Source: Dickeya fangzhongdai (lineage in GTDB: Bacteria > Pseudomonadota > Gammaproteobacteria > Enterobacterales > Enterobacteriaceae). From it: DNA of 64,000 nt. Of the stretch, positions 26,483 to 39,844 are shown piece by piece. A program made the translations under genes and the position numbers. The notes beneath the pieces are model-generated. The model was given only the letters and a program-made list of their open reading frames with translations. It was not told where the DNA came from and did not search any database. Location: the NCBI RefSeq assembly GCF_002812485.1, contig NZ_CP025003.1, positions 434,001 to 498,000 on the forward strand, given 5' to 3'. Numbering within the stretch: the stretch's first letter is position 1; each line of letters opens with the position of its first letter.

Positions 26483-26567
26483 GCCGAAGTGGCGAAATCG
26501 GTAGACGCAGTTGATTCAAAATCAACCGTAGAAATACGTGCCGGTTCGAGTCCGGCCTTCGGCACCA
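26483..26567 (+). tRNA. leuX: tRNA-Leu (anticodon CAA)
   Basis: An 85-base gene from GCCGAAGTGGCGAAATCGG to the encoded CCA. The anticodon loop TTCAAAA (26515-26521) gives anticodon CAA (26517-26519). A long variable arm and the TTCGAGTCC T-loop are present. It is nearly identical to E. coli leuX, which is likewise a site for integrative elements. A Rho-independent hairpin AAGCCACC/GGTGGCTT with T tract follows (26581-26605). Confidence 0.97.
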
Positions 26568-26660
26568 AAATTCAAAAATCAAGCCACCTTCGGGTGGCTT
26601 TTTTTGTGTCCGCTATCGTCCAGTAACTTCCATATGTAATTGTTAAATAAAAATTTAATC
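26550..26660 (+). repeat. Left attachment region (attL) at leuX
   Basis: The sequence from GTCCGGCCTTCGGCACC through the tRNA terminator to TTAAATAAA and TTTAATCT is repeated at 39012-39120. The first 40 bases match except for one deletion; beyond that the copies keep the terminator and several short blocks but differ at many positions. Confidence 0.85.
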
Positions 26661-26734
26661 TAATTTTATTGTCTGTGTGGATTGTGCGTTTTTTCCACAA
26701 TGGTCTTTTTGCATCCGTTGTAATCCAGAAGTTG

Positions 26735-26786: not shown

Positions 26787-28037
26787 ATGAAGCTCAATGC
26801 CCGTCAGGTCGAGACTGCCAAGCCCAAAGAGAAAACCTACAAGATGGCGGATGGGGGCGGCTTATACCTTGAGATTACCCCACGCGGTTCAAAATACTGG
26901 CGCATGAAGTATCGGCGTCCAGATGACAAGAAAGAAGATCGGCTGGCTTTTGGTGTTTGGCCGACAGTCACCCTGGCTGAGGCTCGCGCTAAACGTGATG
27001 AAGCTAAAAAGCTGCTGGTGCAAGGTATTGACCCAAAGGCTGAACAAAAAGAGGCACAGGCTGAAACTGCGGGGGCGTATACCTTTGAGACTATCGCCCG
27101 GCAGTGGCACGCCAGCAACAAGCGCTGGGGCGATTATCACCGCGCACGGGTGATGCGTTATCTTGAACTGTACATTTTTCCGCATATTGGCACGGCAGAT
27201 ATCCGTAAACTCAAAACCAGCCATCTGTTAGCGCCGATAAAAGCGGTGGATGCCAGCGGCAAGCACGATGTAGCACAACGCCTGCAACAGCGTGTTACGG
27301 CGATTATGCGCTATGCCGTGCAGAACGATTATATTGACTCTAACCCGGCCAGTGACATGAGCGGGGCATTAACGACGACGAAAGCACGACACTATCCCGC
27401 ATTGCCGCCGGAACGTCTTCATGAGTTCCTGTCACGGCTTGCTGCTTATCGTGGCCGCCAGATGACACGTATCGCAGTCGAACTCACGTTGCTGACGTTT
27501 GTACGTTCCAGCGAACTTCGTTTTGCCCAATGGCGCGAGTTTGATTTTGATAAGGCTTACTGGCGGGTTCCGGCACAGCGAGAAGCGATCAAAGGTGTGC
27601 GTTACTCCTATCGTGGCATGAAGATGAAGGAAGAGCACATCGTGCCGCTCAGTCGTCAGGCTGTAGCGCTGCTGGAGCAGTTAAAGGCAATTAGCGGCGA
27701 CAGCAAATGCCTTTTCCCAGGTGATCATGACCCGGAAAAAGTGATGAGCGAAAACACAGTCAATAACGCGCTGCGAGCGATGGGTTATGACACGCAAACC
27801 GAAGTTTGCGGACACGGTTTCAGAACGATGGCGCGAGGCGCGTTAGGGGAATCTGGCCTGTGGAGTGACGACGCGATAGAGCGTCAGCTAAGTCATTCTG
27901 AGCGGAATAATGTCCGGGCGGCTTATACTCACACTTCTGAGTATCTGGATGAACGTCGCTTGATGGTGCAGTGGTGGGCGGATTATCTTGATGCTAATAA
28001 AATAGCTGAAGTGACACCATTCGATTTTGCGAAATAA
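26787..28037 (+). CDS. P4-type tyrosine integrase
   Basis: The 416-residue protein has the N-terminal DUF4102 arm-binding domain (LNARQVETAKPKEKTYKMAD, then GGGLYLEITPRG), a core-binding domain and a catalytic domain. Catalytic residues are Arg in LTFVRSSELRFAQW, His/Arg in CGHGFRTMARG and Tyr in NVRAAYTHTSEY. It starts 219 bases after leuX and should integrate and excise the element at the tRNA 3' end. All catalytic residues look intact. Confidence 0.95.
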   Translation: MKLNARQVETAKPKEKTYKMADGGGLYLEITPRGSKYWRMKYRRPDDKKEDRLAFGVWPTVTLAEARAKRDEAKKLLVQGIDPKAEQKEAQAETAGAYTFETIARQWHASNKRWGDYHRARVMRYLELYIFPHIGTADIRKLKTSHLLAPIKAVDASGKHDVAQRLQQRVTAIMRYAVQNDYIDSNPASDMSGALTTTKARHYPALPPERLHEFLSRLAAYRGRQMTRIAVELTLLTFVRSSELRFAQWREFDFDKAYWRVPAQREAIKGVRYSYRGMKMKEEHIVPLSRQAVALLEQLKAISGDSKCLFPGDHDPEKVMSENTVNNALRAMGYDTQTEVCGHGFRTMARGALGESGLWSDDAIERQLSHSERNNVRAAYTHTSEYLDERRLMVQWWADYLDANKIAEVTPFDFAK

Positions 28038-28099: not shown

Positions 28100-30496
28100 T
28101 TAATAGGTGTTAAATATTGACTTTAGTTCATCCCACTCGACTCGGTATTTTAACATGAAGGGGAGTTTTCCTTTGAATTTTTCCATTTTTTCAATGTACT
28201 TTTTGAGATTTTTTGCAGATTTACTTCTGCCGTTCAGTAATGTATCACGGTAACTATTGTTTTCCACATTACCTATAGCGCTCGAAATCCATTTAAATGA
28301 TTCTGAGAACTCATGTTCATTGATGAACTCTATATCAAGTAGGTTCATTTTTTGAATCCATAATAGTGCTGTGATATGTATTATATTTCTTTCGGCAGTT
28401 AGGTTTTTGGATGATTTAGCCCATGTAAATGCTGTATTTAACTCTCTTATTCTATTATTTATTTCGGCAATAAGGTTATTGCCTTGATAAATGTTATAAT
28501 AGGCTTTTGCTTTCTGAACATAAAAATCAGGTTCTTGCCCTTCAATTTCTTGAAGACGGTTGTATAAGTCAATTATAATATCTGCGGCACCTCTATCACC
28601 TTCTGTAAAAATATGGTTTAAATTATCAAACTTTCTTATCGAGGTTGCTAGGCTTTTATCTTTTGGATAAGTGTTTTTAAGGAATCTAATTAAGTTATCA
28701 ACGCACCAATCCTTTCCTTTATTACGATAAAACTCCCTTAATAAAGCAACTACCCAACTTGACGCGTAAGAAGTTATTTTGAAACTAGTGTGATCATATT
28801 TCTCTTCATTTTTTATTCTCTCAATTTCAAGATATGGGCTATGCTGGTTAGTAATTCCTTTTGTCTTATTTATATTAAAGCCACCAGTTATTATTTCCTG
28901 TCCCGTGATACTGTATTTTGTGGCGATGGTACATAAACAAATATAAAGTTCTTCACTGGCATCTATTCTTTTTAAATAATTATTTTCACCAAGTACTTGA
29001 TAGACGTTGAATATTTTTTCGAGTAAATACTTTCCTGTGGTAAATGTAGGAAGGCTGACCTTTATAGCCCCCTCGTTGATTTTCAATACCTCATTTTCTG
29101 ACAGCTTGTTAGATAATGTATATACGACTGTTGAATCGTCAACATCTAAAAAATATTCTTCATCACTATTATTCAGATCAGAACAAAGTAAAATTGATAT
29201 TTTCTTGTTTTTAAAGAATTTTCTCTGTGCCTTAATCCTCTTGAGTAACTCAGCATCTAAGACATTAGAGTCAAAAAATATTATAGAATTTTCCTGTCCA
29301 ATTAGTCTGTTTAATGCGTGATTGTTTAGTTTGTTATTTGAACTAACAATGAATATTTTCCTATCTATTATATTGCTAAGTATACTATAACAAAGTAAAG
29401 TACGACCAGAAACCCTCGTCCCTTTGATAATTGTGATCTCTTTTTCTTGCAACGATCTTGTAATTTCATCTTCTATTTTTCTTTTTCCATAGAAGTACGG
29501 AACTATCAGGCTGTTATACTGTCTTCCATCATTTAGATGTGCTATGCCAGTTAGAAGATATTCTTTATTTTCTATTGGGGATTGTGATAGTTTTTTTATT
29601 TTACATCTGAACTCGTTAAGCTCTGGAGAGTTTCTTGAGGATAATTGATAAGCTGAATTTATTAATGAGTATATTTGTTCATATTTCCCTTCATCAAATA
29701 ATATTATATTGTTAATCCCCATATTTATGAAATCTTGCTCATCAATCTCATCAGGTTTTTCATTTAAAAACATGATGTTTTGTGTCTGTTTTCTTCCAAT
29801 TTGTGAGTGTTGGGCTACAACAAACGCCAGATCAATCTCATCAGTTAAACTACAGCCAATATAAATAATGTTTTTTTCTTTAAAGTCTAATTGCAATAAT
29901 TCAAGCATTCTGCGATTTGATTCTAATGATGTGAGATAATCTGATCTCTTAAAAATCAACCTACTAACTTCATGTCTCATTTCATATTGTATGTCTCCAT
30001 GTATTTTATATAATGTTGGATGATTTTTAGAATCAAATGATAAGTGCTGATCATAAGGTAAGGCTATTTTGTAATCAGAGCAATTTTCAATTGCATCATC
30101 TACATTAAGAGTATAAATGTAAGGCCATCTTATATCTCGTATAAATGCTCTTTGAGGTGTATCCAAAGCAGCTCCATCGAAGCTATCTATAAGATATTTT
30201 CTTCTCTTTTCTTTGTTAACCCAATCATCATTAAAAAAAAGATCGCTAATTTCGCTGAATTTCTTTGATTTTATTTTTTCTTTTTTTTCATCAGATAATT
30301 TTTTTTCTTCAACTATTATTTCAACCATCTTTTTAGCAAATTGTGTGCCTGAAGGGACTTGCTTTCCAGATTTTGTTTGGCATCCAACCGTAAATCCTGA
30401 ACCAATAATAGGTATGAGGTTGTTATTGGTGAAACAGTTTGCTAATAATTCAACAATCTCTTGGCAATCATGTGAATAATAAGAAATTTTACTCAT
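28100..30496 (-). CDS. SIR2-domain protein with STAND-like NTPase region, candidate anti-phage NADase
   Basis: A 798-residue protein. Residues 1-230 carry SIR2 motifs: PIIGSGFT (29-36), the TLNVDD motif (129-134), catalytic His166 in KIHGDIQ and the IGCSLTDEID strand (213-222). Next comes FYGKRKIEDEI (335-345), as seen before STAND NTPase cores, then a Walker A-like GTRVSGRT (359-366) with Arg in place of Lys, and IIFFDS (405-410) as a possible Walker B. The C-terminal 300 residues are helical, without clear repeats. SIR2-STAND proteins are known phage-sensing NAD-depleting defence proteins. The AT-rich gene stands alone between int and the replication block, where P4-like satellites keep cargo. 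Confidence 0.75.
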   Translation of the reverse strand: MSKISYYSHDCQEIVELLANCFTNNNLIPIIGSGFTVGCQTKSGKQVPSGTQFAKKMVEIIVEEKKLSDEKKEKIKSKKFSEISDLFFNDDWVNKEKRRKYLIDSFDGAALDTPQRAFIRDIRWPYIYTLNVDDAIENCSDYKIALPYDQHLSFDSKNHPTLYKIHGDIQYEMRHEVSRLIFKRSDYLTSLESNRRMLELLQLDFKEKNIIYIGCSLTDEIDLAFVVAQHSQIGRKQTQNIMFLNEKPDEIDEQDFINMGINNIILFDEGKYEQIYSLINSAYQLSSRNSPELNEFRCKIKKLSQSPIENKEYLLTGIAHLNDGRQYNSLIVPYFYGKRKIEDEITRSLQEKEITIIKGTRVSGRTLLCYSILSNIIDRKIFIVSSNNKLNNHALNRLIGQENSIIFFDSNVLDAELLKRIKAQRKFFKNKKISILLCSDLNNSDEEYFLDVDDSTVVYTLSNKLSENEVLKINEGAIKVSLPTFTTGKYLLEKIFNVYQVLGENNYLKRIDASEELYICLCTIATKYSITGQEIITGGFNINKTKGITNQHSPYLEIERIKNEEKYDHTSFKITSYASSWVVALLREFYRNKGKDWCVDNLIRFLKNTYPKDKSLATSIRKFDNLNHIFTEGDRGAADIIIDLYNRLQEIEGQEPDFYVQKAKAYYNIYQGNNLIAEINNRIRELNTAFTWAKSSKNLTAERNIIHITALLWIQKMNLLDIEFINEHEFSESFKWISSAIGNVENNSYRDTLLNGRSKSAKNLKKYIEKMEKFKGKLPFMLKYRVEWDELKSIFNTY

Positions 30497-30819
30497 GGGT
30501 TTCCTCTAACTCTAAATAAATTTTATATTACTATTTATTAATATTTTCATGAGACTTGTATCGATATTTTTAGCAGAATAAATTTTTTTTATCAATCGAG
30601 ATTTCGAGTGATTCATAATCATTTCTTATGAATTGTTTTTACATGGTCTGACTCACTCGTTGGCCTTAAAATGTCTCCGCTGTGCCCTGTTCGCTACGTT
30701 AATAGCTATAGAATCAGACTCTCACCCCCTTGAAATCCCACCAAAACTGTCGTAATTTTGTCCACGCAACACCGCTGTCGATGACAGCCACCAATGTTTC
30801 CAGTATCAGGATGATACGA

Positions 30820-30909
30820 GTGACCCGTGAGAAACGCCTTCGGGTGGTCACAACGCCAAAGTCATAGGGAATGGAGCGTGGTCTGAGACTGACGCCTTCG
30901 GGCGACCAC
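30820..30909. ncRNA. Twin 32-base hairpins with compensatory changes
   Basis: Two 32-base units (30820-30851 and 30878-30909) share ACGCCTTCGGG and fold alike. Unit 1 has an outer stem GTGACC/GGTCAC and unit 2 has GTGGTC/GACCAC: two of six base pairs differ and both change on both sides, keeping pairing (A-U to G-C, C-G to U-A). Each has an inner GCC-UUCG-GGU or GCC-UUCG-GGC stem with a stable UUCG loop. This pattern points to selection on RNA (or on DNA hairpins). The functional strand cannot be told. A 65-codon minus-strand frame overlaps but looks spurious. Confidence 0.5.
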
Positions 30910-30953
30910 ACCGGTACTGTTACTCTTCCATCGCCTGCAAGGAAGAGAGCGTG

Positions 30954-31046
30954 ATGAAGAAGCGCGGTAAATCTGCCAGCCTTTGGGAGCAGATGTCGTC
31001 AGGTAGTTTGAGCGCCGTTACGAGCGTGACGATGAAGGTCAGTTAA
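30954..31046 (+). CDS. Possible 30-residue protein downstream of the twin hairpins
   Basis: MKKRGKSASLWEQMSSGSLS... ends MKVS*. AAGGAAGAG (30939-30947) is a good ribosome site before the ATG at 30954. It starts 44 bases after the second hairpin. It is basic, with no recognised domain. It might be a leader or toxin-like peptide, or chance. Confidence 0.3.
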   Translation: MKKRGKSASLWEQMSSGSLSAVTSVTMKVS

Positions 31047-31695
31047 ACTAAACCATAGCCCATTGGGCCCTAAGTTTTACCCATAACCCGGCTTGCCGGG
31101 CGGCGTAAAATGCTTCACTTATACTATACCCAGCCAGAGCGCGGTTTTCCCGTACCGTAGGACACTGGCTTGTAGCTGCAACGTTTATCGTTGTAGTGAT
31201 TTCACATACTAAGCGACTTAACTGGCGCTTACTCTCGTAAGTTCACGTTAGCGTGCAACTTCGATTTTACTCGTCCCAACGATTGCCGTCTGTACGTGTG
31301 AACGTGCGGGTTGTACCGCATGATGCCGTAATGCATCAGGGCTGTATCCGCCTGTCACGCTTTCACCCGGCGTCACTTTTACCGCGCAAGCAGGTGAAAG
31401 TGACGCCGCGCACTGACGTCTTTCTCGACTTTACTCATGGCCGTTTGCGCTGCGTGTCAACATTCTGACACCACCGTTTTCGCGCCTCATTGTGTTTAAA
31501 AGCATTCTGGATCGATACCGAGGCAGGCGATTTGCCTGGGGGTATGACTGTGTGAACAGCGGTTGCACTGTGTGCATCACCGAACCCCCGATACCTCAAC
31601 AAAACCCAAGCCCTCAGGCGCACAGGTATCGTTCAGGCAGAGCACCGACTCTGCATAGCAGCCATGCGCCGAAGGGCTGAAGTCGAGATAAGAGC
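31047..31695. other. Hairpin-rich non-coding stretch before the second integrase gene
   Basis: About 650 bases without a convincing gene. Perfect or near-perfect stems include CCCGGC/GCCGGG (31087-31100), CTGCAACG/CGTTGTAG (31176-31196), TGATGC/GCATCA (31321-31338), and a 14-bp stem GCGTCACTTTTACC/GGTGAAAGTGACGC (31370-31406). P4-type elements have cis-acting replication and packaging regions, so this could be such a site or an untranslated leader. No iterons are seen here. Confidence 0.4.
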
Positions 31696-32577
31696 ATGAC
31701 AAAACTCAGTCGTGAAATGAAAACATGGGCGAAACAGGCGGGTGGCAGCCATAAAACGGTTCATGATCGCCTCCGTATTGTTGAGCGTTTGTGCCGTCAT
31801 TTGCTGGCACTCAACATTCAGGTGCGCAGCGTACAGCACGTTAAAGCCCGGCATATCGAAAGCTATGTGTCGGCCCGCCGCTCTCAGGGCATGGCTTTGC
31901 GCACGCTGCATAACGAGATGTCCGCCTTGCGCAGCGTGCTGCGTCTGGCAGGCCGGGGCAAACTGGTGGATGACCCCCGCCTGAGCAATCAGGCGCTGGG
32001 GCTGGGTGGTGCCAGCCGGGCAGGCACTAAATATGCCATCCCGGATGCGCTCTATCAGTCCGTGCTGGAGTCCGCCCGCCGGGAAGATGCCGGTCTGGCC
32101 TGTGCGCTCCAGCTTGCCCGGTTGCTGGGGTTGCGTTCGCAGGAAGCGGTGCAGTGTTGCGCCTCGCTCAAGCGCTGGGAGCAGCAACTGACCCGGCAGG
32201 CTGACCGGCTCACTGTCGTGTTTGGCACCAAAGGCGGGCGACCGCGTGAAACCCGTGTGCTGGACAGCGCAGCGGTACTTGCTGCTGTGCGTGAGGCACT
32301 CGTCATCGCCGACAACCGCAACGGTAAACTCATCGATAAGCCGGATTTGAAAACCGCCATGAATTTCTGGCGTGCCCGTACTACCCGCCTTGGCCTGACC
32401 GGCCAACACTCCCCCCACAGTCTGCGTTATGCCTGGGCGCAGGATGCCATGCGTTTCTACCTTGCCGACGGGTTTAGCCGTCAGGAGGCACGGGCGCTGG
32501 TGTCGATGGATTTGGGTCATGGCGATGGCCGTGGCCGTTATGTTGAACGTGTCTACACCCGTCAGGAGGAGGCGTAA
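31696..32577 (+). CDS. Second integrase-domain protein
   Basis: The 293-residue protein has an N-terminal SAM-like core-binding domain (KTVHDRLRIVERLCRHLLAL) and a C-terminal tyrosine recombinase fold. Catalytic-type residues are Arg in LLGLRSQEAVQ, His/Arg in SPHSLRYAWA, His in DLGHGDGRGRY and a late Tyr in YVERVY. It is not next to an att site and is followed with overlap (TAATG) by an AlpA-type gene. Such internal integrase-like genes are common in enterobacterial islands; the activity is not established. Confidence 0.8.
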   Translation: MTKLSREMKTWAKQAGGSHKTVHDRLRIVERLCRHLLALNIQVRSVQHVKARHIESYVSARRSQGMALRTLHNEMSALRSVLRLAGRGKLVDDPRLSNQALGLGGASRAGTKYAIPDALYQSVLESARREDAGLACALQLARLLGLRSQEAVQCCASLKRWEQQLTRQADRLTVVFGTKGGRPRETRVLDSAAVLAAVREALVIADNRNGKLIDKPDLKTAMNFWRARTTRLGLTGQHSPHSLRYAWAQDAMRFYLADGFSRQEARALVSMDLGHGDGRGRYVERVYTRQEEA

Positions 32578-32780
32578 TGATGTCCAGTCTCACTCTGTTG
32601 CGTTTGCCCGATGTGATGAAAAAAACCAGCCTCAAAAAATCCTGGATCTATTACCTGATCGATCGTGGCGAGTTCCCCCAGCCGGTGAAGCTGGGCGCAC
32701 GTTCTGTCGCCTGGGTGGAGAGTGAAATCAACGACTGGATTGCCGAGCGTATCCGTCAGCGGGCGGAGGGGCGAAAATGA
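32577..32780 (+). CDS. AlpA/Vis-type DNA-binding regulator
   Basis: The 67-residue protein MMSSLTLLRLPDVMKKTSLK has a winged helix-turn-helix of the AlpA/MerR-like kind (KSWIYYLIDRGEFPQPVKLG, ARSVAWVESEINDWI). In P4 and the CP4-57 prophage such proteins control int and excision. A second ATG follows at 32580. The start overlaps the stop of the upstream integrase-like gene, so the pair is probably coupled. Confidence 0.88.
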   Translation: MMSSLTLLRLPDVMKKTSLKKSWIYYLIDRGEFPQPVKLGARSVAWVESEINDWIAERIRQRAEGRK

Positions 32781-32826
32781 GTCATTCAGCTTTTCTTCTG
32801 GCGGGCAAATTGGGCTATACTGCGCG

Positions 32827-32913
32827 GGCTACGGCAAAATCCGTAGCCGGAATTGGCGTTCCGACGATTACCACGGTGTCTAAAAAACACGTACATCATG
32901 TTGCGTGTTTTTT
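32827..32913 (+). ncRNA. C4/CI-type antisense regulatory RNA region
   Basis: Three consecutive hairpins: GGCTACGG/CCGTAGCC (32827-32848), GGAA-TTGGCG-TTCC (32849-32862), and AAAAAACACG/CGTGTTTTTT (32882-32913), the last a terminator shape. The loop sequence TTGGCGT (32853-32859) is complementary to ACGCCAA (32997-33003), which sits in the loop of another hairpin downstream, and TTGGCGT occurs again at 33030-33036. This matches the logic of P4 CI RNA and P1 C4 RNA, which act through loop pairing with their own leader to stop transcription. A 179-codon frame over this region is taken as an artefact. Confidence 0.65.
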
Positions 32914-32983
32914 TATAGACAGTGCTTGCGCACACCTGTCAATGGTGGCTCAGGCGGGGGCTCCGAAAGGAGCGCCGGAGCCC

Positions 32984-33021
32984 GTGGTAGCCGGTTACGC
33001 CAACCCCGTCTGGGCTACCAC
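32984..33021 (+). promoter_or_regulatory. Target hairpin of the C4/CI-like RNA
   Basis: GTGGTAGCC (32984-32992) pairs perfectly with GGCTACCAC (33013-33021), displaying a 20-base loop that contains ACGCCAACCCC. The antisense loop TTGGCGT is complementary to it. A GC-rich stem GGGCTCC/GGAGCCC (32958-32983) precedes it. The structure lies in the leader of the replication genes. Confidence 0.55.
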
Positions 33022-33078
33022 CCACGGGATTGGCGTCTCAGGTGGTGGCTGTTTTCTGCTTACCACGGAGGCTGCCTT

Positions 33079-33147
33079 ATGGCTACGACCCTTAGCTATT
33101 CCTGCCTGCAATCTTTCACCTCTCTTGTGGAGGTGCGCTATGTATAA
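33079..33147 (+). CDS. Possible 22-residue leader peptide
   Basis: MATTLSYSCLQSFTSLVEVR ends YV* overlapping the start of the next gene (33140). ACGGAGG precedes the ATG with normal spacing. Small leaders of this type accompany C4/CI-type control in P4-like elements, where translation and RNA pairing decide termination. Confidence 0.4.
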   Translation: MATTLSYSCLQSFTSLVEVRYV

Positions 33148-33316
33148 CCCCACACCGTTGTTACTGGAAGAGATCGCCGATCACTGCCGGGTGCTGGCCT
33201 ACGCCATCATTGAGCTAGAAAACCCCGTTGCCAAAGAGCTGCTGATGTTCATCTTATGGGAGCGACTTAACCTGCTGAATGACGCGCTGGATGCGGAGGG
33301 GCCGGACAATGAGTAA
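33140..33316 (+). CDS. Small acidic protein upstream of the primase gene
   Basis: 58 residues, MYNPTPLLLEEIADHCRVLA..., with a helical acidic sequence and GTGGAGGTGCGCT before the ATG. It overlaps the primase start by 8 bases, suggesting coupling. I do not recognise the family. Small genes in this place are usual in P4-like replication operons. Confidence 0.65.
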   Translation: MYNPTPLLLEEIADHCRVLAYAIIELENPVAKELLMFILWERLNLLNDALDAEGPDNE

Positions 33317-35351
33317 GTTTGTCTCGGAAAGTGTTGCACAATCCCGCCACCGCTGGCCGTCGATTCTGGCGGCATTAGATATCTACTTTCCTGCCGGGGG
33401 CCAGCATGGCCCTTGCCCTGTCTGCGGTGGAAAAGATCGCTTCCGCTTTGATGATAAGCGTGGGCGTGGCACCTGGTTCTGCAATCATTGCGGCCACGGT
33501 GATGGTCTGGATCTGGTCGCCCGCGTCAGGCGGTGTGACATTGCAGAAGCGGCCAGAATGGTGACGGCACTGGCGTCATCAGCCAGTGAAACACCGCCCG
33601 CCAGAGAAAAGGCGGTTGATCCCCGCCCGCTGGCGGAGCGCATCAAGGCGCTGATGGCTGCCGCGAGCACCGGGGAAAGCCCGTATCTGAAAGCCAGAGG
33701 GCTGATGACACCGGCGATGCGGCTGACTGCCGCACAGGCGATGACCATCGGGCGTGTCCGGTTTGGTGAAGGATCGCTACTGTTGCCGATGTTCCGCACC
33801 TCCGGTGAACTGGCGGGCGCGCAACTGATCACGCCCGGCGGTGAAAAGCGGTTGTATCCCGGCACGCAATTGAAAGGGGCGTTTATTCCGGTCAACCACG
33901 GCCCGGAGCCGTCGAAGCTGATTATTACCGAAGGGTATGCCACCGCACTCACCCTGCAACAGTGCTCGTCATGCCATGTGGTGGCGGTATCGGCCAATAA
34001 CCTGCTGAACGTGGCGCAGGCATTCAGAGCGCGTTATCCCCATTGCTGTCTGATTCTGGCCGGGGATAACGATATTCACTCGGATGGCGCGGCCAACACC
34101 GGCAAGCTGATGGCGGAGAAAGCAGCGCTGGCCGTTGACGGCTGGGTATCCCTGCCGCCGACCGATACCGCCTGTGACTGGGATGATTTTCGCCAGCGGC
34201 ACGGCATGGAAGCCACCAAAGCCGCGTTCCGGCGTCAGCTTACCCGGCCTGCCGTTATCAGCCCGGCCCCATTGCCTGACGCCGGGCAATCTCCCGTTGC
34301 GGTCTTCTCTTCCGCCCTGCCTCTGCGTAAAGGCTCGGAAGGGTTTGATACCCGGCAGGATTACCTGATCAAGGGCTACCTGCCGAGCGGCGCAGTTGCC
34401 AGTGCTTACGGTGCCAGCGGGTCGTATAAATCCTTTCTGGCTGTTTCCTGGGCGTGCCATATCGCCACCGGAAAGCCGTGGGCCAACCGACCGGTCACAC
34501 AGGGTGCGGTGATTTATGTGGTAGGCGAAGGCGGGATCGGCGTACCGCGCCGCATTCGGGCGTGGGAGGAAACGCTGAACGACCGTAGCCCGATTGATGC
34601 ACTCTATCGCGTTGACTGCCCGGTATTCCCGGCCAGTCCCGACAGCGTGGAGCAGGTGATCAAGGCCGCCCATGACGTGCAGGCCGCCACCGGGATGGCG
34701 GTACGGCTGATCATTCTGGATACACTGGCCCGCTGCTTTGGCGGTTCGGATGAAAACGCCGCTAAAGACATGGGGGCGTTTATTCAGGGGTGCGACTACA
34801 TCAAGGCGGCCACGCAGGCCACGGTACTGATTATTCATCACTCCGGCAAAGATCAGGACAAAGGCGCTCGCGGCTCCAGTGCCTTCCGGGCTGCGCTGGA
34901 TGTGGAGTTTAATGTGCGCCGCGAGGCCGACGGGCAGGCGCTGATCCTGACCTGTACCAAGATGAAGGACGCCGAAGAGCCGCCACGCCGGGCCTACGAC
35001 CTGACGGCGGTGAATCTGTACGTGGACGATGACGGCGAGCCGGTCACGTCGCTGGTTCTGCGGGATGAAGGCCGGGAAGTCCGCGATGACCCGACCGACG
35101 CTGACCCGGCGCTCAGTGGGATCACCCGGCTGACGGATAACCATGTAGTGCTGTGGGAAGCGATCCGCTCGCGCACGGCCAGTGGCGACGGCTGCACCCG
35201 CGCACTGGTGCGTGACGATATGCGGGCGATGGGGTTTGATGTCTCCAAAAAGTTTACCCGCTGGCTGGATAAACTCGTCAGGGATGACCTGATCGCACTG
35301 GATGGTGAAAACATCGTGCCATTATCAAAACGCAGTAACGTGGGGGAATAA
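33309..35351 (+). CDS. P4 alpha-like primase fused to RepA-type helicase
   Basis: About 680 residues from MSKFVSESVAQSRHRWPSIL (33309). Zinc-binding primase domain: cysteines 36, 39, 58, 61 in CPVC and CNHC. TOPRIM-type catalytic core: Glu208 in LIITEGYATA and the GDND acidic motif near 252. A RepA/RecA-like helicase follows, with Walker A GASGSYKS (368-375) and Walker B LIILDTLARCF. It should prime and unwind the element's own origin, replacing host DnaB/DnaG loading. The iteron-like repeats just downstream are the likely origin. Overlaps the small upstream gene by 8 bases. Confidence 0.9.
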   Translation: MSKFVSESVAQSRHRWPSILAALDIYFPAGGQHGPCPVCGGKDRFRFDDKRGRGTWFCNHCGHGDGLDLVARVRRCDIAEAARMVTALASSASETPPAREKAVDPRPLAERIKALMAAASTGESPYLKARGLMTPAMRLTAAQAMTIGRVRFGEGSLLLPMFRTSGELAGAQLITPGGEKRLYPGTQLKGAFIPVNHGPEPSKLIITEGYATALTLQQCSSCHVVAVSANNLLNVAQAFRARYPHCCLILAGDNDIHSDGAANTGKLMAEKAALAVDGWVSLPPTDTACDWDDFRQRHGMEATKAAFRRQLTRPAVISPAPLPDAGQSPVAVFSSALPLRKGSEGFDTRQDYLIKGYLPSGAVASAYGASGSYKSFLAVSWACHIATGKPWANRPVTQGAVIYVVGEGGIGVPRRIRAWEETLNDRSPIDALYRVDCPVFPASPDSVEQVIKAAHDVQAATGMAVRLIILDTLARCFGGSDENAAKDMGAFIQGCDYIKAATQATVLIIHHSGKDQDKGARGSSAFRAALDVEFNVRREADGQALILTCTKMKDAEEPPRRAYDLTAVNLYVDDDGEPVTSLVLRDEGREVRDDPTDADPALSGITRLTDNHVVLWEAIRSRTASGDGCTRALVRDDMRAMGFDVSKKFTRWLDKLVRDDLIALDGENIVPLSKRSNVGE

Positions 35352-35530
35352 ACGGGGGAAATGTGGGGGGCACCGGGTATCAGGCTATGGTATCCGGCGG
35401 CTTCCCCCACTTCCCGGATGCCTATATACCCTAAGTGGGGGAGAATAATTAACTTACTGTATATCAATGATTTGTTGTTTTCCTGCCGTTATCCAGTGGG
35501 GGAAATGCATTACGCGGTAAAGTGGGGGAA
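35340..35530 (+). repeat. Iteron-like GTGGGGGAA repeats, candidate replication origin
   Basis: GTGGGGGAA or GTGGGGGAG occurs at 35340-35348, 35435-35443, 35496-35504 and 35522-35530, with an inverted copy TTCCCCCAC at 35402-35410. Related G-runs are at 35354 and 35364. The intervening part (35444-35480) is AT-rich. Repeats like this right after the primase-helicase gene resemble iterons bound by an initiator. The first copy overlaps the end of the primase gene. Confidence 0.6.
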
Positions 35531-35573
35531 AGATGGGGCATCAGCACAGAAAACCGCTTTACCAGCATGAACG

Positions 35574-35840
35574 CTATTTACCCCTTTCCTGCCTGATGCG
35601 ACGTTTTCTGTCAATCAATGTACCCGTTTCATCAAAATAGCGGCTGGGCCAGATTTCAGCGGGATGTTTGTCCAGCGCGGTGGCAACCAGCCATTCCCCC
35701 TTCGGCCAGGGACGTACCAGCACATTCGCCAGTGTGGAAGAACTAAGTCCCGCAGAACGGGATAGCGCGGCCAGCGTGGTGCCTTTCTTGCGTAAGCCAG
35801 CGATGATATCCGCCTGATGCCAGTCGTTATACGTAGTCAT
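35574..35840 (-). CDS. Ner/SfsB-like DNA-binding regulator
   Basis: The 88-residue protein MTTYNDWHQADIIAGLRKKG has the winged HTH of the phage Mu Ner/Nlp family (TLAALSRSAGLSSSTLANVL, then RPWPKGEWLVATAL). It probably represses promoters of the element. It converges with the primase gene toward the iteron region. Confidence 0.88.
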   Translation of the reverse strand: MTTYNDWHQADIIAGLRKKGTTLAALSRSAGLSSSTLANVLVRPWPKGEWLVATALDKHPAEIWPSRYFDETGTLIDRKRRIRQERGK

Positions 35841-35919
35841 ACCTTCTTCCTTATTTATTAAGATGTCAGGTAACCATACGTACTAATTCTTCCGCATTTA
35901 CTAAGAGTTACTTAGTGGT

Positions 35920-36158
35920 ATGAAAGCCGGTTTGTCTCGTGAGCACAGCGCTTAGGCATTCTTGCCGGGATAGACGAAGCGAAGGCCAGCGCTTGCATGA
36001 ATCAGTATGAGCGCGGCATTCACACGCCGGATTTTGAGCTGGCGTGCCGACGGGCTGCTGTACTGCATGTTCCGGCCTGTTATTTTTATACGGTAGAAGA
36101 TGATTTGGCAGAAATGATCCTGTCGTTTTACGACACGAAGGAAAATCCATCTTCATAG
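35920..36158 (+). pseudogene. Broken XRE-family regulator
   Basis: Two frames rebuild one helix-turn-helix protein. MKAGLSREHSA* is read from 35920, and after a one-base shift near 35953 the sequence continues GILAGIDEAKASACMNQYER, GIHTPDFELACRRAAVLHVP, ACYFYTVEDDLAEMILSFYD to a TAG at 36156-36158. That is a typical phage-type XRE repressor C-terminal half. The normal N-terminus is also short. It is likely inactive. Confidence 0.7.
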
Positions 36159-36168
36159 TGCCACGGAG

Positions 36169-36200
36169 CGCCCGCCCCCTCCCAAAAAAGGGGGCGGGCG
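36169..36200. terminator. Strong GC-rich hairpin after the broken regulator
   Basis: CGCCCGCCCCCT (36169-36180) pairs perfectly with AGGGGGCGGGCG (36189-36200) around an 8-base loop. There is no U-tract, so it may act as a barrier or processing site. Confidence 0.5.
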
Positions 36201-36302
36201 CGGTGCCAGACGCTATCATGATTGGCTGACCATAAGATCTGGTCGCGACTAATAACGTTAATTAATTGACCTTCGACTAATACTGATGGGAAATGACGCC
36301 AT

Positions 36303-36704
36303 TTATTTTAAATCAGCATGCTTAAATGTTTGCTCGCCAGCCTGGCTATTTGTCATTTTTAGCACGCGATTCTCTTCCGTATAAGTGATTAAGGCATCAT
36401 TCGGGTTATCTCGCCAACGGCCTATGTAGTTAGGTTCTGAATCACTTCCAGCGCTTCGCCATAGCACCCGTGACCCTTCTATCATCTTGCACTGATATTT
36501 CCACAGGCTATTATCACTTGGCCTGTGATATTGCAAATTAACGAGATCCCCATTCACTTTTGTTTTCATTATTTTGGGTTCTTTTGCGAACTCCATTGAT
36601 ATGGCCGCTTTACAGATTTCAACATTCGAGAAAGGAGCTGAAAAAGCGGGAATAGCCATTAATGAGGTACTTAAAATCAGAGAGAACTTAATTAAATGCT
36701 TCAT
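36303..36704 (-). CDS. Small exported protein of unknown function
   Basis: 133 residues with a signal peptide (about 1-22, ending AFSAP). The mature part has two cysteines (EICKAA, YQCKMI) that could form a disulfide, and a beta-rich YIGRWRDNPNDALITYTEEN segment. I do not recognise the family. GAGGGTTT precedes the ATG. It stands alone in the element and is a cargo gene. Confidence 0.65.
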   Translation of the reverse strand: MKHLIKFSLILSTSLMAIPAFSAPFSNVEICKAAISMEFAKEPKIMKTKVNGDLVNLQYHRPSDNSLWKYQCKMIEGSRVLWRSAGSDSEPNYIGRWRDNPNDALITYTEENRVLKMTNSQAGEQTFKHADLK

Positions 36705-36732
36705 AAACCCTCTTTATTTTGATAAAAATTTA

Positions 36733-37212
36733 TTACCATAACGATAATAATAAGGTGTGTTCCTGTATTTCTGACGCGACAAAACCCCAGTATTGGTAGA
36801 ACGCTTTTGCCTCATCAGATAACGCATGTACCAATAACGCTTTGTTGCCTACCTGCTGCGCTACATTGCGGGAGCGGAGTACCGCATCTTTCAGGAGCCC
36901 GGCACCGATCCCCATGCGTTGATAACGTTCATCAACGGCTAATCGGCCAAGTACCAGAACAGGAATGGGGTCAGGCATATTGCGCCGGAATGCGCCCGGC
37001 GCAACCTGACGCTGGATGCTACCCGACGCGAGGGCATAGAACCCCACCACACGCTGTGTACCGGCTTCACACACCACGAAGGTGCGTGAAGCGCCCAGTG
37101 TCTGATTTTTTAACGCCTTGCGTTTCAGCCATTCATTCAATGACGGCTCTGAACAATGAAAATCCACAACCGCATGTTGAGGCAGCAATAATTCAGGTGC
37201 CGTTATTCCCAC
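36733..37212 (-). CDS. TacT-like GNAT toxin
   Basis: The 159-residue protein MGITAPELLLPQHAVVDFHC shows the GNAT fold used by TacT/AtaT toxins, which acetylate aminoacyl-tRNA and stop translation. Signs: DFHCSEPSLNEWLKRKAL, VVGFYALASGSI, the acetyl-CoA loop DERYQRMGIGAGLLKDAV and the catalytic-type Tyr in EAKAFYQYWGF. It overlaps the DUF1778-type antitoxin gene by 10 bases, as in tacAT. Confidence 0.9.
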   Translation of the reverse strand: MGITAPELLLPQHAVVDFHCSEPSLNEWLKRKALKNQTLGASRTFVVCEAGTQRVVGFYALASGSIQRQVAPGAFRRNMPDPIPVLVLGRLAVDERYQRMGIGAGLLKDAVLRSRNVAQQVGNKALLVHALSDEAKAFYQYWGFVASEIQEHTLLLSLW

Positions 37213-37475
37213 GGAGATTTCCTGTTCAGTAATGCATTCACACGCGGATTATCTGTGACAGGTGATTCCAACACCTGAATGAAAGCATCATATTGTTCAT
37301 CATTGACCAGAAACAGCCGTTGATCCAACAACACATCCTCAGCCTCACGGCAGGCAGCATCAAGGATAAACTCTGTTCTTGATTTCGACAGCAATTTAGC
37401 AGCGACATCAATCAGCTCCCGCTGTGATGCTTTAGCACGAATATTAATCGGCATTTCTTTTGTCTCTGTTCGCAT
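37203..37475 (-). CDS. TacA-like (DUF1778) antitoxin
   Basis: From MRTETKEMPINIRAKASQRE the protein has 90 residues with a ribbon-helix-helix N-terminus and a helical tail (VNALLNRKSPWE) that wraps the toxin. SKSRTEFILDAACREAEDVL is the DUF1778 signature. The frame extends to 37547 but the start at 37475 is preceded by GAGGTCACG. It comes first in the operon and should repress it. Confidence 0.9.
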   Translation of the reverse strand: MRTETKEMPINIRAKASQRELIDVAAKLLSKSRTEFILDAACREAEDVLLDQRLFLVNDEQYDAFIQVLESPVTDNPRVNALLNRKSPWE

Positions 37476-37584
37476 CGTGACCTCTCTGTGTAGCGAATAG
37501 CTATACATCCAGTATAGTGAACGGTACAGAAAATAGCCATACGCCATTTATGAACAACATTTTCGTCATCGCGGGGTTGGGTTA

Positions 37585-37611
37585 GGATCTGTTGCCCGGA
37601 ATCGAACCGGA
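37585..37611 (-). other. tRNA T-arm-like fragment
   Basis: On the minus strand the sequence TCCGGTTCGATTCCGGG forms a 5-bp T-stem with the TTCGATT loop, followed by CAACAGATCC. No anticodon arm precedes it, so it is not a full tRNA. It could be an att-site remnant of another element or a chance match. Confidence 0.35.
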
Positions 37612-37740
37612 ACGGATAAGAATTAATCTTATTGAGAAAATGACGTGATATAGCTCATTGATGACCCTGACCCAAAATCCTGCTCCATTCAGAAACAGAA
37701 TTCCGGCATGATAATGACGCCCTGAACGGAGGTTGTGCCG

Positions 37741-38007
37741 ATGAAAAAGTCGCGATTCACCGAAGAACAGATTGTGTTTGCCCTGAAGCAGGCTGAATTG
37801 GGTACGCCGGTGCCGGAAGTCTGCCGCAAGCTGGGGATTTCCGATGCCACTTTTTATACGTGGCGTAAAAAATACGGTGGGATTTCACCGTCAGAACTCA
37901 AGCATATGCGACAGCTTGAAGAAGAAAACCTGCGGTTGAAGAAGCTGGTTGCCGATCTGAGCCTCGATAAAGCGATGTTGCAGGATGTCCTCGCAAAAAA
38001 GAGCTGA
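37741..38007 (+). CDS. IS3-family OrfA
   Basis: 88 residues from MKKSRFTEEQIVFALKQAEL, an HTH (VCRKLGISDATFYTWRKKYG) followed by a leucine-zipper-like helix (QLEEENLRLKKLVADLSLDK). Ends in a slippery AAAAAAG (37994-38000), where a -1 shift would make the OrfAB transposase. Confidence 0.9.
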   Translation: MKKSRFTEEQIVFALKQAELGTPVPEVCRKLGISDATFYTWRKKYGGISPSELKHMRQLEEENLRLKKLVADLSLDKAMLQDVLAKKS

Positions 38008-38859
38008 CGCTGGCACGTCTGCGCGAATGGGTCAGGGATTTACAAGCGCGCTACGGTGCCAGTGAGAGACAGGTCTGTTTGGCATTGCGGATCAGTCGTA
38101 GTTCGTTTCGATACCGTTCTGTTGCCGCTGATGACAGTGCGCTGCGCCTGCGCATTCGTGAGATCACCGAAACCCGGGTGCATTACGGCTACCGACGGGT
38201 ACATGTGATGCTCAGGCGCGAAGGCTGGCGTGATAATCACAAGCGGATCTACCGTCTTTACAGCCAGCAGGGGCTATCGTTACGTCTCAAGCGGCCACAC
38301 CGCAACAAATCTGCCCAGCGGCGTCAGCCGCAACCTCAGGGGTTATATCCGAACCCTGTGTGGGGTATGGATTTTGTCTCTGATGCCTTGTTTGACGGAC
38401 GTCGATTACGCCTGCTGACCGTTATCGATCTCTACACGCGCGAGTGTCTTGGGATCTGTGTGGGACAGAACCTTCGTTCAACAGAGGTCGCTGAGATGCT
38501 GAACCATATCGCCAGTCATCGCCAGTCATCGCCCGTTGCCTCAGTGGCTGAAAACCGACAATGGCTCTGAATTTGCAGGAAAAATGCTGGATAAATGGGT
38601 TTACGAACGGGGTATCCGCATTGATTTTTCCCGGCCGGGAACACCGACGGACAATGCCACGGTGGAATCCTTCAACGGCAGGTTGCGGCAGGAATGCCTG
38701 AACGAGAACGGGTTCATGTCTCTGGAGGATGCACGGTGCAAAATCGAAGCCTGGCGCATACACTATAATCAGAGACGTCCCCATTCTGCGCTGGGTTGGA
38801 TGACGCCATCCGAATTTGCTCAAAAATCTGTCGGTTGCCAGAATATGCAGCCATCCTGA
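37998..38859 (+). pseudogene. IS3-family OrfB transposase, frameshifted by a 10-bp duplication
   Basis: The first part (from the frameshift site to 38570) carries the first DDE aspartate in WGMDFVSDALF. A perfect 10-base tandem repeat GCCAGTCATC (38511-38520, 38521-38530) shifts the frame. Removing one copy restores NHIASHRPLPQWLKTDNGSE, joining the ORF that starts at 38536, which has the remaining DDE residues in KTDNGSEF and NATVESFNGRL. The damage is therefore a recent slippage event. Confidence 0.9.
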
Positions 38860-39011: not shown

Positions 39012-39120
39012 GTCCGGCCTTCGCACCAAAATTCAAAAATCAAGCCACCTTTGGGTGGCTTTTTTTGTGCCCGTTATCGTCTATTAATGTTCATATTTGA
39101 CTATTAAATAAACTTTTAAT
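39012..39120 (+). repeat. Right attachment region (attR)
   Basis: Copy of the leuX 3' end and its terminator (AAGCCACCTTTGGGTGGCTT at 39042-39061). One G of the tRNA GGCACCA end is missing. The similarity runs through about 110 bases, longer than a normal att core, which suggests that the downstream flank itself came from an earlier, related integration. Confidence 0.8.
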
Positions 39121-39121
39121 C

Positions 39122-39844
39122 TTATTTTTTCCGCCCCACGATTTGAATAACGTTGAAATATTCTCCGGCCCCGGCCTCCATGATGGGAACCATCATTTCC
39201 TGAGCAAGCGTGCATTCCATAAAGTCATCCCACGCCTGCCGGCATGAATCCATTTCGCGCAGCATGGTAATTTCTATGCCGGATTCTTTTTCCCATAACG
39301 CTTTCCACCAGTGACAGGAATAAAAATACCAGTCTGGTGTCCAGAAAGGTTTGACCACCTCTGGCAAGTTGCCTTCTGAGTAGTCCTGTATAAAACCGGG
39401 GACGGCAACCGCTATCAGCCCGCCTTTTTTCACAAAAGGCAGCAGTTTCGCCAGCATGCCGTCGTTGCTGCCAAAGTACTGCCAGGCGTCCACGCTGATG
39501 ATCATGTCAAAGTATTCATCAACAAAGGGGATCTCCTTCGTTACGTCTACCCGCAGGGGAAAAATTTTAGAATCAACCCCCAGACTGGTGAACCGCTGTG
39601 CGTTTTCGGTCGGGGGGATCCATGAATCGGCGGCAAACACCGTCACGTCGTACTTTTCCGCCAGCAGGATGGACGAAATTCCTTTCCCGCAACCAAGGTC
39701 AAGGATACGCATGCCCGGCGAAATGGGGAGCATATTGGCCATTTCTTCCGTAATGCGCATGGCATTCGGCCCCATCATCGTGTCCAGCAAAAAAGCTTTG
39801 TCATAGCTATCGGTAAACGGGGTATTAATAGGCATATTCATCAT
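39122..39844 (-). CDS. yjhP: SAM-dependent methyltransferase (YjhP-like)
   Basis: 240 residues. A class I methyltransferase: MRILDLGCGKGISSILLAEK (SAM loop), then VFAADSW, SVDAWQYFG and GGLIAVAVPGF. In E. coli yjhP belongs to the topAI-yjhQ-yjhP group of the KpLE2 element, which also lies by leuX. Here it follows topAI after only 7 bases. The substrate is unknown. Symbol given by context and fold; identity was not measured. Confidence 0.7.
   Translation of the reverse strand: MMNMPINTPFTDSYDKAFLLDTMMGPNAMRITEEMANMLPISPGMRILDLGCGKGISSILLAEKYDVTVFAADSWIPPTENAQRFTSLGVDSKIFPLRVDVTKEIPFVDEYFDMIISVDAWQYFGSNDGMLAKLLPFVKKGGLIAVAVPGFIQDYSEGNLPEVVKPFWTPDWYFYSCHWWKALWEKESGIEITMLREMDSCRQAWDDFMECTLAQEMMVPIMEAGAGEYFNVIQIVGRKK

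What the first reader, a model, noticed from the sequence alone, without database searches (positions are those of the whole stretch)
28100..30496. Large SIR2/STAND-like protein as cargo of a P4-like satellite
The sequence shows SIR2 motifs (GSGFT, TLNVDD, KIHGD) followed by a STAND-like opening (FYGKRKIEDEI) and a Walker A with Arg instead of Lys (GTRVSGRT). Single-gene SIR2-STAND systems (for example Avs5-type) are known phage sensors that deplete NAD. The Arg in the P-loop and a C-terminus without clear sensor repeats suggest a variant branch that may sense a different trigger or work without ATP hydrolysis. It sits alone in the cargo slot beside int.
Basis: partly seen in the sequence, partly recalled or inferred. 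Interest (0 to 1): 0.85.

Follow-up and report, generated by a model that had tools for sequence, protein, structure and literature searches.

The report
Avs5-like phage sensor with arginine P-loop
A mobile element carries a bacterial immune protein of the Avs5 kind, which probably destroys the cell's NAD when a phage is sensed, and in its branch of the family the usually fixed ATP-binding lysine has repeatedly been swapped with arginine.

Summary
The ORF at 28100-30496 (-), 798 aa, is real and intact. It is a distant Avs5 relative (PADLOC Avs5 E 3e-63; NCBIfam Avs5 241.5 bits, cut-off 1000; solved structure 9nah E 8.6e-41) aligning nearly to the end of the C-terminal sensor; SIR2 NADase residues are kept. 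The odd Walker A (GTRVSGRT) is shared by close relatives: in 99 rows of at least 680 aa (window included, 95 distinct) position 365 is Lys in 72 and Arg in 27; one row left out by hand has Met. Trees need 7-8 Lys/Arg changes, 6-7 forced. Of 119 further proteins found with the 9nah-type Avs5, 119 have Lys (113 more matches were not listed). Walker B keeps its Asp in 99 of 99, a second acid in only 7. A Walker B Glu-to-Gln mutant of another Avs5 still protects, so the likeliest mechanism is a phage-triggered SIR2 NADase switched by nucleotide binding, hydrolysis perhaps dispensable. The element is P4-related, but no Psu was found; a sister gene lies between int and psu of a P4-like satellite. 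New variant of a known kind. Trigger, NAD loss and ATPase state are untested.

The parts
28100..30496 (-). Avs5-like SIR2-STAND protein, 798 aa
   Evidence: PADLOC Avs5 E 3e-63; NCBIfam Avs5 241.5 bits; 9nah_A E 8.6e-41
29627..30496 (-). SIR2 NADase effector domain, about residues 1-290 (boundary approximate); Asn131, Asp133, His166 and Glu220 kept
   Evidence: PF13289 at residues 127-255; Asn131, Asp133 and His166 in 99 of 99 rows; Glu220 in 99 of 99
29057..29506 (-). STAND NTPase domain, about residues 331-480 (boundaries approximate)
   Evidence: weak nSTAND3 match, below cut-off, residues 342-409; alignment with 9nah
29399..29422 (-). Walker A GTRVSGRT, residues 359-366, Arg365 (codon CGT at 29402-29404) in place of Lys
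29264..29287 (-). Walker B-like SIIFFDSN, residues 404-411, Asp409 without a following acid
   Evidence: Asp409 in 99 of 99; residue 410 acidic in 7 of 99
28514..28564 (-). segment Tyr645 to Gln661, matched by spacing only to the proposed Tyr661/Trp675/Gln677 pivot of PaAvs5-1
   Evidence: Tyr645 in 97 of 99, Gln661 in 99 of 99; the Trp675 counterpart, 659, is aromatic (W, Y or F) in only 66 of 99; pivot described in PMC12931631 section 13
28103..28321 (-). C-terminal end of the sensor, residues 726-798, the fastest-changing part together with the short linker 291-330
   Evidence: 58% mean identity to seven close relatives against 82% for SIR2; dN 0.268 against 0.102 versus L041
26787..28037 (+). 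tyrosine integrase, convergent with the avs5-like gene, 62 bp apart
   Evidence: Pfam; 86% identical to the integrase of L041
26483..26567 (+). tRNA-Leu(CAA), likely integration site
26562..26667 (+). left copy of the 106-bp direct repeat (tRNA end plus downstream), likely att
39023..39128 (+). right copy of the repeat, 86% identical, 12,461 bp further on
32577..32780 (+). AlpA-like excisionase/regulator
   Evidence: phrog_2790 E 5.4e-14; 51% to AlpA of L041 over 59 residues
32777..33316 (+). Ash family protein
   Evidence: PF10554 E 1.7e-36
33279..35351 (+). primase: Zn ribbon, Toprim and AAA_25; residues 12-335 of the P4-alpha-like protein of L041 match its N-terminal part at 40%

Best explanation
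It is a one-gene anti-phage sensor that works like Avs5. A phage protein binds the C-terminal helical domain; the STAND NTPase, holding a nucleotide through the Arg-type P-loop (Arg365, Thr366) and Asp409, changes conformation and the protein assembles; the SIR2 domains (Asn131, Asp133, His166, Glu220) then hydrolyse NAD+ and infection stops. In this branch Arg and Lys at the P-loop look interchangeable, so the switch most likely needs nucleotide binding but not efficient hydrolysis. Shown here: family, kept residues, recurrent K/R exchange, position in the element. Inferred from published work on other Avs5 proteins: NAD loss, assembly, sensing. Inferred only: binding without hydrolysis. My odds are about 0.8 for a phage-sensing SIR2-STAND NADase and about 0.45 for the step 'hydrolysis is dispensable'.
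For: Nearly whole-length Avs5 matches. SIR2 residues Asn131, Asp133, His166, Glu220 in 99 of 99. P-loop residue 365 is K 72 / R 27 of 99 (K 69 / R 26 of 95 distinct), with 8 changes on the 99-row tree (7 forced by starred branches) and 7 on a careful tree of 42 of these rows (6 forced; bootstrap 5-95% range 7-7). Of the five columns that are over 90% Lys/Arg, 164, 339 and 664 hold one residue in 99 of 99. dN 0.126 against L041 while dS is saturated. Published, for PaAvs5-1: Gly362Ala and Lys363Ala lose immunity, Glu410Ala loses it, Glu410Gln keeps it (PMC12931631 section 12); N110A, D112A and E202A lose it, and NAD+ falls threefold at 10 min, returning by 15 min (section 11); C-terminal deletions lose it (section 13). 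Filament formation appears to be needed for Avs5 activity (passages of PMC12700824).
Against: I found no experiment on this branch (paper searches). The score is far below NCBIfam's Avs5 cut-off (241.5 against 1000 bits). Section 12 of PMC12931631 is headed 'ATPase activity of PaAvs5 is essential for immunity' and leaves open binding or hydrolysis. Its Arg438, a proposed arginine finger, could not be placed: no conserved Arg stands at 430-447 in the 99 rows. Lys is fixed in 119 of 119 proteins of the L036 search, so Lys may matter there. One relative, L026, has Met. Column 115 also mixes Lys 84 and Arg 5, with Gln 6, Leu 2 and Ser 1, so Lys/Arg exchange as such is not unique to the P-loop. No structure prediction was possible.
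Confidence: 0.7

Rival explanations
1. Arg365 is a neutral swap: the Arg-type P-loop binds and hydrolyses ATP as well as the Lys type, and the branch differs from Avs5 only in its sensor.
For: K and R types sit close together on the trees (P0016 beside P0023, 100*; P0012 near P0013); Arg in 27 of 99; Lys/Arg mixing also at column 115.
Against: Lys in 119 of 119 proteins of the L036 search, and three other conserved basic columns (164, 339, 664) show no exchange in 99 of 99. In RecA and Rad51 Lys to Arg blocks hydrolysis (recalled; only a search listing seen).
Confidence: 0.3
2. The NTPase domain is degenerate and no longer binds nucleotide; the protein is triggered by ligand binding alone.
For: nSTAND3 profile match is weak (E 0.013); Walker B mostly lacks the second acid; L026 has Met.
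Against: Gly364 and Asp409 in 99 of 99, residue 366 Thr 78 or Ser 21 of 99, and only Lys or Arg at 365 in the 99 rows; free decay would give other residues.
Confidence: 0.1
3. A SIR2 protein with a cellular role, such as a deacetylase.
For: SIR2 fold; the PDB searches also list chains deposited as NAD-dependent deacetylase (E 0.19; E 3.7e-9 with the profile).
Against: Best matches are Avs5; AT-rich gene; patchy: 1 of 369 class genomes and 1 of 9 genus genomes, the window's own each time; beside an integrase in two elements.
Confidence: 0.03
4. An Avs5-like protein that the element uses mainly against rival mobile elements or a helper phage rather than against lytic phages.
For: Cargo beside int here and in the P4-like satellite L041; satellite hotspots take part in inter-viral competition (PMC9122126, abstract start and passages).
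Against: No trigger is known; the Avs5 proteins described in PMC12931631 act on jumbo and other phages.
Confidence: 0.15

Closest known systems
Avs5 of the NCBIfam/9nah lineage (L036; relatives named AVAST type 5 in Klebsiella, Serratia and others)
   Same: SIR2 + STAND + C-terminal domain in one chain, nearly whole-length alignment, Walker B Asp (89 of 89), HG motif (87 of 89, 2 gaps)
   Different: 14-29% identical per domain, linker 7% (two proteins); Walker A mostly GRRFSGK[TS], Lys in 89 of 89 of the closest set, instead of GxRVSGRT
PaAvs5-1 (Mol Cell 2026, PMC12931631)
   Same: tripartite layout; N110/D112/E202 correspond by motif to N131/D133/E220; Tyr661/Gln677 have the spacing of Tyr645/Gln661
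   Different: PaAvs5-1 has NG in place of HG, GPAGSGKT with Lys, Walker B Glu; its sequence was not held, so no direct alignment was made
SIR2-STAND cargo of P4-like satellites (Cell Host Microbe 2022, PMC9122126)
   Same: The paper places its hotspot between psu and int and mentions SIR2-STAND proteins there; the L041 gene sits between psu and int
   Different: The window's element has no detected psu; whether relatives of this gene are in that paper's tables was not checked

Membership tests
Avs5 (AVAST type 5) | SIR2 effector, STAND NTPase and C-terminal sensor in one protein, alignable over nearly the whole length | tested here: met
   PADLOC 18-796 to 15-765 of 771; NCBIfam 16-771 to 13-742 of 763; the single-domain nSTAND3 match is below its cut-off
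Avs5 (AVAST type 5) | score over the NCBIfam equivalog cut-off (1000 bits) | tested here: not met
   241.5 bits; so not an equivalog member but a related branch
Avs5 (AVAST type 5) | SIR2 catalytic residues | tested here: met
   Asn131, Asp133, His166 and Glu220 in 99 of 99 rows, window included
Avs5 (AVAST type 5) | Walker A with Lys | tested here: not met
   Arg365; Lys in 119 of 119 proteins of the L036 search
Avs5 (AVAST type 5) | conserved Arg after Walker B (Arg438 of PaAvs5-1) | tested here: inconclusive
   no conserved Arg at 430-447 in 99 rows, but PaAvs5-1 itself was not held
Avs5 (AVAST type 5) | phage protection with NAD+ loss, trigger such as JADA, filament formation | not testable with these tools
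   bench work needed
P4-like satellite (for the element) | integrase next to a tRNA, AlpA, Ash, alpha-like primase | tested here: met
   only the N-terminal part of the primase resembles alpha
P4-like satellite (for the element) | psu and the D5 helicase part of P4 alpha | tested here: not met
   tblastn of L041 Psu finds nothing in the window at E 0.01; L041 alpha matches only by residues 12-335 of 794
P4-like satellite (for the element) | sid, delta and cos | not tested
   no query for these was run

The most novel reading that the evidence does not exclude
A branch of STAND immune receptors in which nature has repeatedly installed the classic 'binds but does not hydrolyse' Lys-to-Arg P-loop change (recalled from RecA and Rad51), giving a one-shot, nucleotide-locked NADase switch that cannot be reset by ATP hydrolysis.
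Probability: 0.25. Interest if true: 0.75.

Novelty: new variant of a known kind. Interest (0 to 1): 0.5.

Why it matters
The P-loop lysine is usually treated as invariant, and mutating it to Ala kills the published PaAvs5-1. A branch where Lys and Arg have changed places at least six times, with no third residue in the 99 counted rows, is a set of natural experiments that could show directly whether STAND immune switches need ATP hydrolysis or only nucleotide binding. It also suggests that motif searches that demand Lys would miss working receptors.

Tried and rejected
A first genome-contig scan with the single protein found no relative; with the 29-row alignment A1 it found 34 loci. The Nat Commun 2025 Avs5 filament paper is not held. 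Near DNA matches in E. coli genomes: none for the gene or int, two short Icd-like pieces for 30500-37600. Phage records: no tblastn match. Plasmid records: 3, one Vibrio at 44% and two Enterococcus at 25%. Paper searches aimed at natural Arg at Walker A in STAND or NLR proteins gave listings of 8, 8 and 0 papers; from titles and abstract starts none addressed it; none of them was opened. Considered and rejected: sequencing error (many relatives share Arg), pseudogene (open frame, low dN against saturated dS), free decay of the P-loop (K or R only in 99).

Papers: PMC12931631, seen as outline with abstract, sections 9, 11, 12, 13 and passages; PMC12700824, passages; PMC9122126, passages. All others only as search listings. 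RecA/Rad51 Lys-to-Arg behaviour is recalled.

Rows dropped before the K/R count. Of 109 proteins collected, 99 were counted. Dropped for length under 680 aa: L022, L030, L032, P0011, P0014, P0025, P0048, P0060. Dropped by hand because their match was partial: L023, L026. Their residue: Lys in L022, L023, L032, P0048; Arg in P0011, P0014, P0025, P0060; Met in L026; L030 does not reach the P-loop. Never collected: L031, L034, L035 of the 34 loci (short matches, no such P-loop in the DNA held) and L040 (Vibrio plasmid; Lys); the two Enterococcus plasmids were not fetched. Two counted rows are under 750 aa (P0027, P0062). Arg361 accompanies 27 of 27 Arg rows and 46 of 72 Lys rows, but the dropped P0060 has Arg365 without Arg361. 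The 69 proteins come from 7991 scored candidates, a cap. Of the 233 proteins only the best 120 were listed; 119 were new and all 119 were counted, some of them fragments or near-copies; 30 of the 119 are distant (E above 1e-60) and not of the L036 lineage.

Tree warnings: long branches and odd composition for several rows, among them P0033, L003 and P0036; in the careful tree long branches meet at the base. The first tree was the quick method.

The report was sent back once for checking; the mends were: per-domain identity to L036 14-29% (not 16-29%), column 115, distinct-row counts, the pivot residue 659, weaker wording on codons and dN/dS, rows never collected, names of relatives, the paper's own heading on ATPase.

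Full report
What is there. The window holds an intact 798-codon gene on the minus strand at 28100-30496, found once in its genome of 5,032,447 bases. GC is about 0.31 in the gene body against 0.52-0.59 around it. It lies 62 bp from, and convergent with, a tyrosine integrase (26787-28037, +) next to a tRNA-Leu(CAA) gene. A 106-bp direct repeat that starts in the tRNA end (26562-26667) recurs at 39023-39128 with 86% identity, which probably bounds an element of about 12.5 kb. I did not look for the empty site.

What it is related to. Profile searches give Avs5 over nearly the whole length (PADLOC E 3e-63; NCBIfam 241.5 bits, cut-off 1000) and PF13289 SIR2_2; the separate nSTAND3 profile matches only weakly (E 0.013). 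The best solved structure is 9nah (E 8.6e-41; profile A3 E 5.6e-120 over 1-795). The protein of locus L036 scores 1178 bits with the Avs5 model and 1609 bits with 9nah, so 9nah belongs to the named Avs5 lineage; I did not see the paper on 9nah. On a 99-row tree the window's protein sits in a supported set of 33 rows (100*; Arg 23, Lys 10), apart from L036. Where a source names the relatives, it is mostly 'SIR2 family protein' or 'hypothetical protein' (for example Enterobacter cloacae complex, Kosakonia, Citrobacter farmeri, Salmonella enterica, Aeromonas veronii, Vibrio cholerae, Pseudomonas putida).

How rare it is. With the alignment of its branch, 1 of 369 genomes drawn from the class and 1 of 9 of the genus match at E 1e-20, each time the window's own. 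With the NCBIfam Avs5 model, 4 of 295 family genomes match, the window's own included, and 1 of them passes the cut-off. With the PADLOC model 1 of 398 phylum genomes matches, the window's own.

The P-loop. Residue 365 is Arg (codon CGT) in GTRVSGRT. In the 69 proteins, window included, it is Lys in 42 and Arg in 27. In 99 proteins of at least 680 aa from the searches up to then, it is Lys in 72 and Arg in 27, or 69 and 26 of 95 distinct ones. No third residue occurs in these, but L026, which I left out by hand, has Met. Four Arg rows lie outside the 33-row set: P0061, P0064, L007, L019. Five columns are over 90% Lys/Arg: 164, 339 and 664 hold a single residue in 99 of 99; 115 mixes Lys 84, Arg 5, Gln 6, Leu 2, Ser 1; 365 holds Lys 72, Arg 27. 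The 99-row tree needs 8 Lys/Arg changes, 7 forced by starred branches (quick method). A careful tree of 42 of these rows needs 7, 6 of them forced, bootstrap range 7-7. The P-loop column was left out of both trees; they cannot tell gain from loss, and both carry long-branch warnings. As a control I searched with L036: of 233 matches 120 were listed, 119 of them new, and 119 of 119 have Lys; 89 of these form the closest set, down to 35% identity. So the exchange belongs to the window's branch and a few neighbouring lineages. Arg codons are CGT in the window and CGC in its close relative L041, AGA in L008 and L019, AGG in L007. Since several of these may be separate origins, the codons say mainly that the window's Arg is not a fresh one-base change from Lys.

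The rest of the switch. Walker B has Asp409 in 99 of 99, and residue 410 is acidic in only 7 of 99. PaAvs5-1 of Pseudomonas aeruginosa needs its P-loop Gly and Lys, loses function with Glu410Ala and keeps it with Glu410Gln; [quoted passage not shown] That mutant is the main reason why I read the Lys/Arg exchange as 'binding is needed, hydrolysis perhaps not'. In RecA and Rad51 the same Lys-to-Arg change is known to allow ATP binding without turnover and to stabilise filaments (recalled; one search gave only a listing). Avs5 also works through filaments (passages of PMC12700824). The step to this branch is inference. The Arg438 that the paper reports could not be placed in these proteins.

Effector and sensor. 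Asn131, Asp133, His166 and Glu220 are 99 of 99. Asn131, Asp133 and Glu220 correspond by motif to residues whose mutation kills PaAvs5-1 (section 11), which has NG where these have HG. Tyr645 (97 of 99) and Gln661 (99 of 99) have the spacing of the proposed pivot Tyr661/Gln677; the counterpart of Trp675, residue 659, is aromatic in only 66 of 99. This is by spacing, since that sequence was not held. The last 73 residues and the short linker change fastest (58% mean identity to seven close relatives; SIR2 82%), as expected of a part that reads phage ligands. Against L041 dN is 0.126 overall and dS could not be computed (saturated); the SIR2 part gives dN 0.102 with dS 3.7, the C-terminus dN 0.268 with dS 1.5, so the ratios (0.03 and 0.18) are rough.

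The element. The closest DNA relative is L041, a contig of the viral collection whose avs5-like protein groups as identical with P0004, named from Kosakonia sp. MH5. The integrases are 86% and the SIR2 proteins 80% identical. The main DNA match (75.8% over 3,770 bp) covers int plus this gene and stops at its start codon; apart from the tRNA region only short pieces match beyond it. At protein level the elements also share AlpA, Ash and the first part of the primase. L041 has Psu (phrog_6165, E 2.5e-60) and a D5-type alpha protein, so there the gene lies between psu and int of a P4-like satellite, the slot described by Rousset et al. (passages of PMC9122126). The window's element has an AAA_25-type primase and no Psu by tblastn. 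I call it P4-related; sid, delta and cos were not tested. Relatives also lie elsewhere, for example on a Vibrio plasmid amid insertion sequences, with Lys at the P-loop.

Verdict. A real, intact Avs5-like immune receptor of a separate branch, carried as cargo. Its P-loop Arg is a true, recurrent variant. Function is inferred from relatives. New variant of a known kind; interest 0.5, and 0.75 if a natural hydrolysis-free STAND switch is shown.

Noticed in passing
window 36733-37547 (-): A TacA-like antitoxin (PF08681) and a GNAT acetyltransferase, probably a TacAT-type toxin-antitoxin pair, inside the same element.
   Followed up: no
window 31696-32577 (+): A second recombinase (Integrase_1, PF12835, E 1e-70) inside the element; its role beside the tRNA-type integrase is unclear.
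   Followed up: no
window 37735-38859 (+): An IS3-type transposase pair, second frame apparently interrupted, just inside the right repeat (named from sequence, not searched).
   Followed up: no
window 39122-39844 (-): A methyltransferase-like gene at the right repeat with a partial match to the PADLOC mad2 model (E 9.6e-16, 126 of 492 positions); probably a generic methyltransferase.
   Followed up: partly
window 30496 and L041 6057: The main DNA homology between two elements ends at the start codon of the avs5-like gene, as if int plus cargo moved as one module while the rest was exchanged.
   Followed up: partly
L026 1781-3916: An Avs5-like protein of a Coriobacteriaceae MAG with Met at the P-loop lysine position, GRRFSGMT.
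   Followed up: partly
L008 8400-9604: Two genes just before the Azotobacter avs5-like gene look like an Xre/RES toxin-antitoxin pair (read from sequence, not searched).
   Followed up: no
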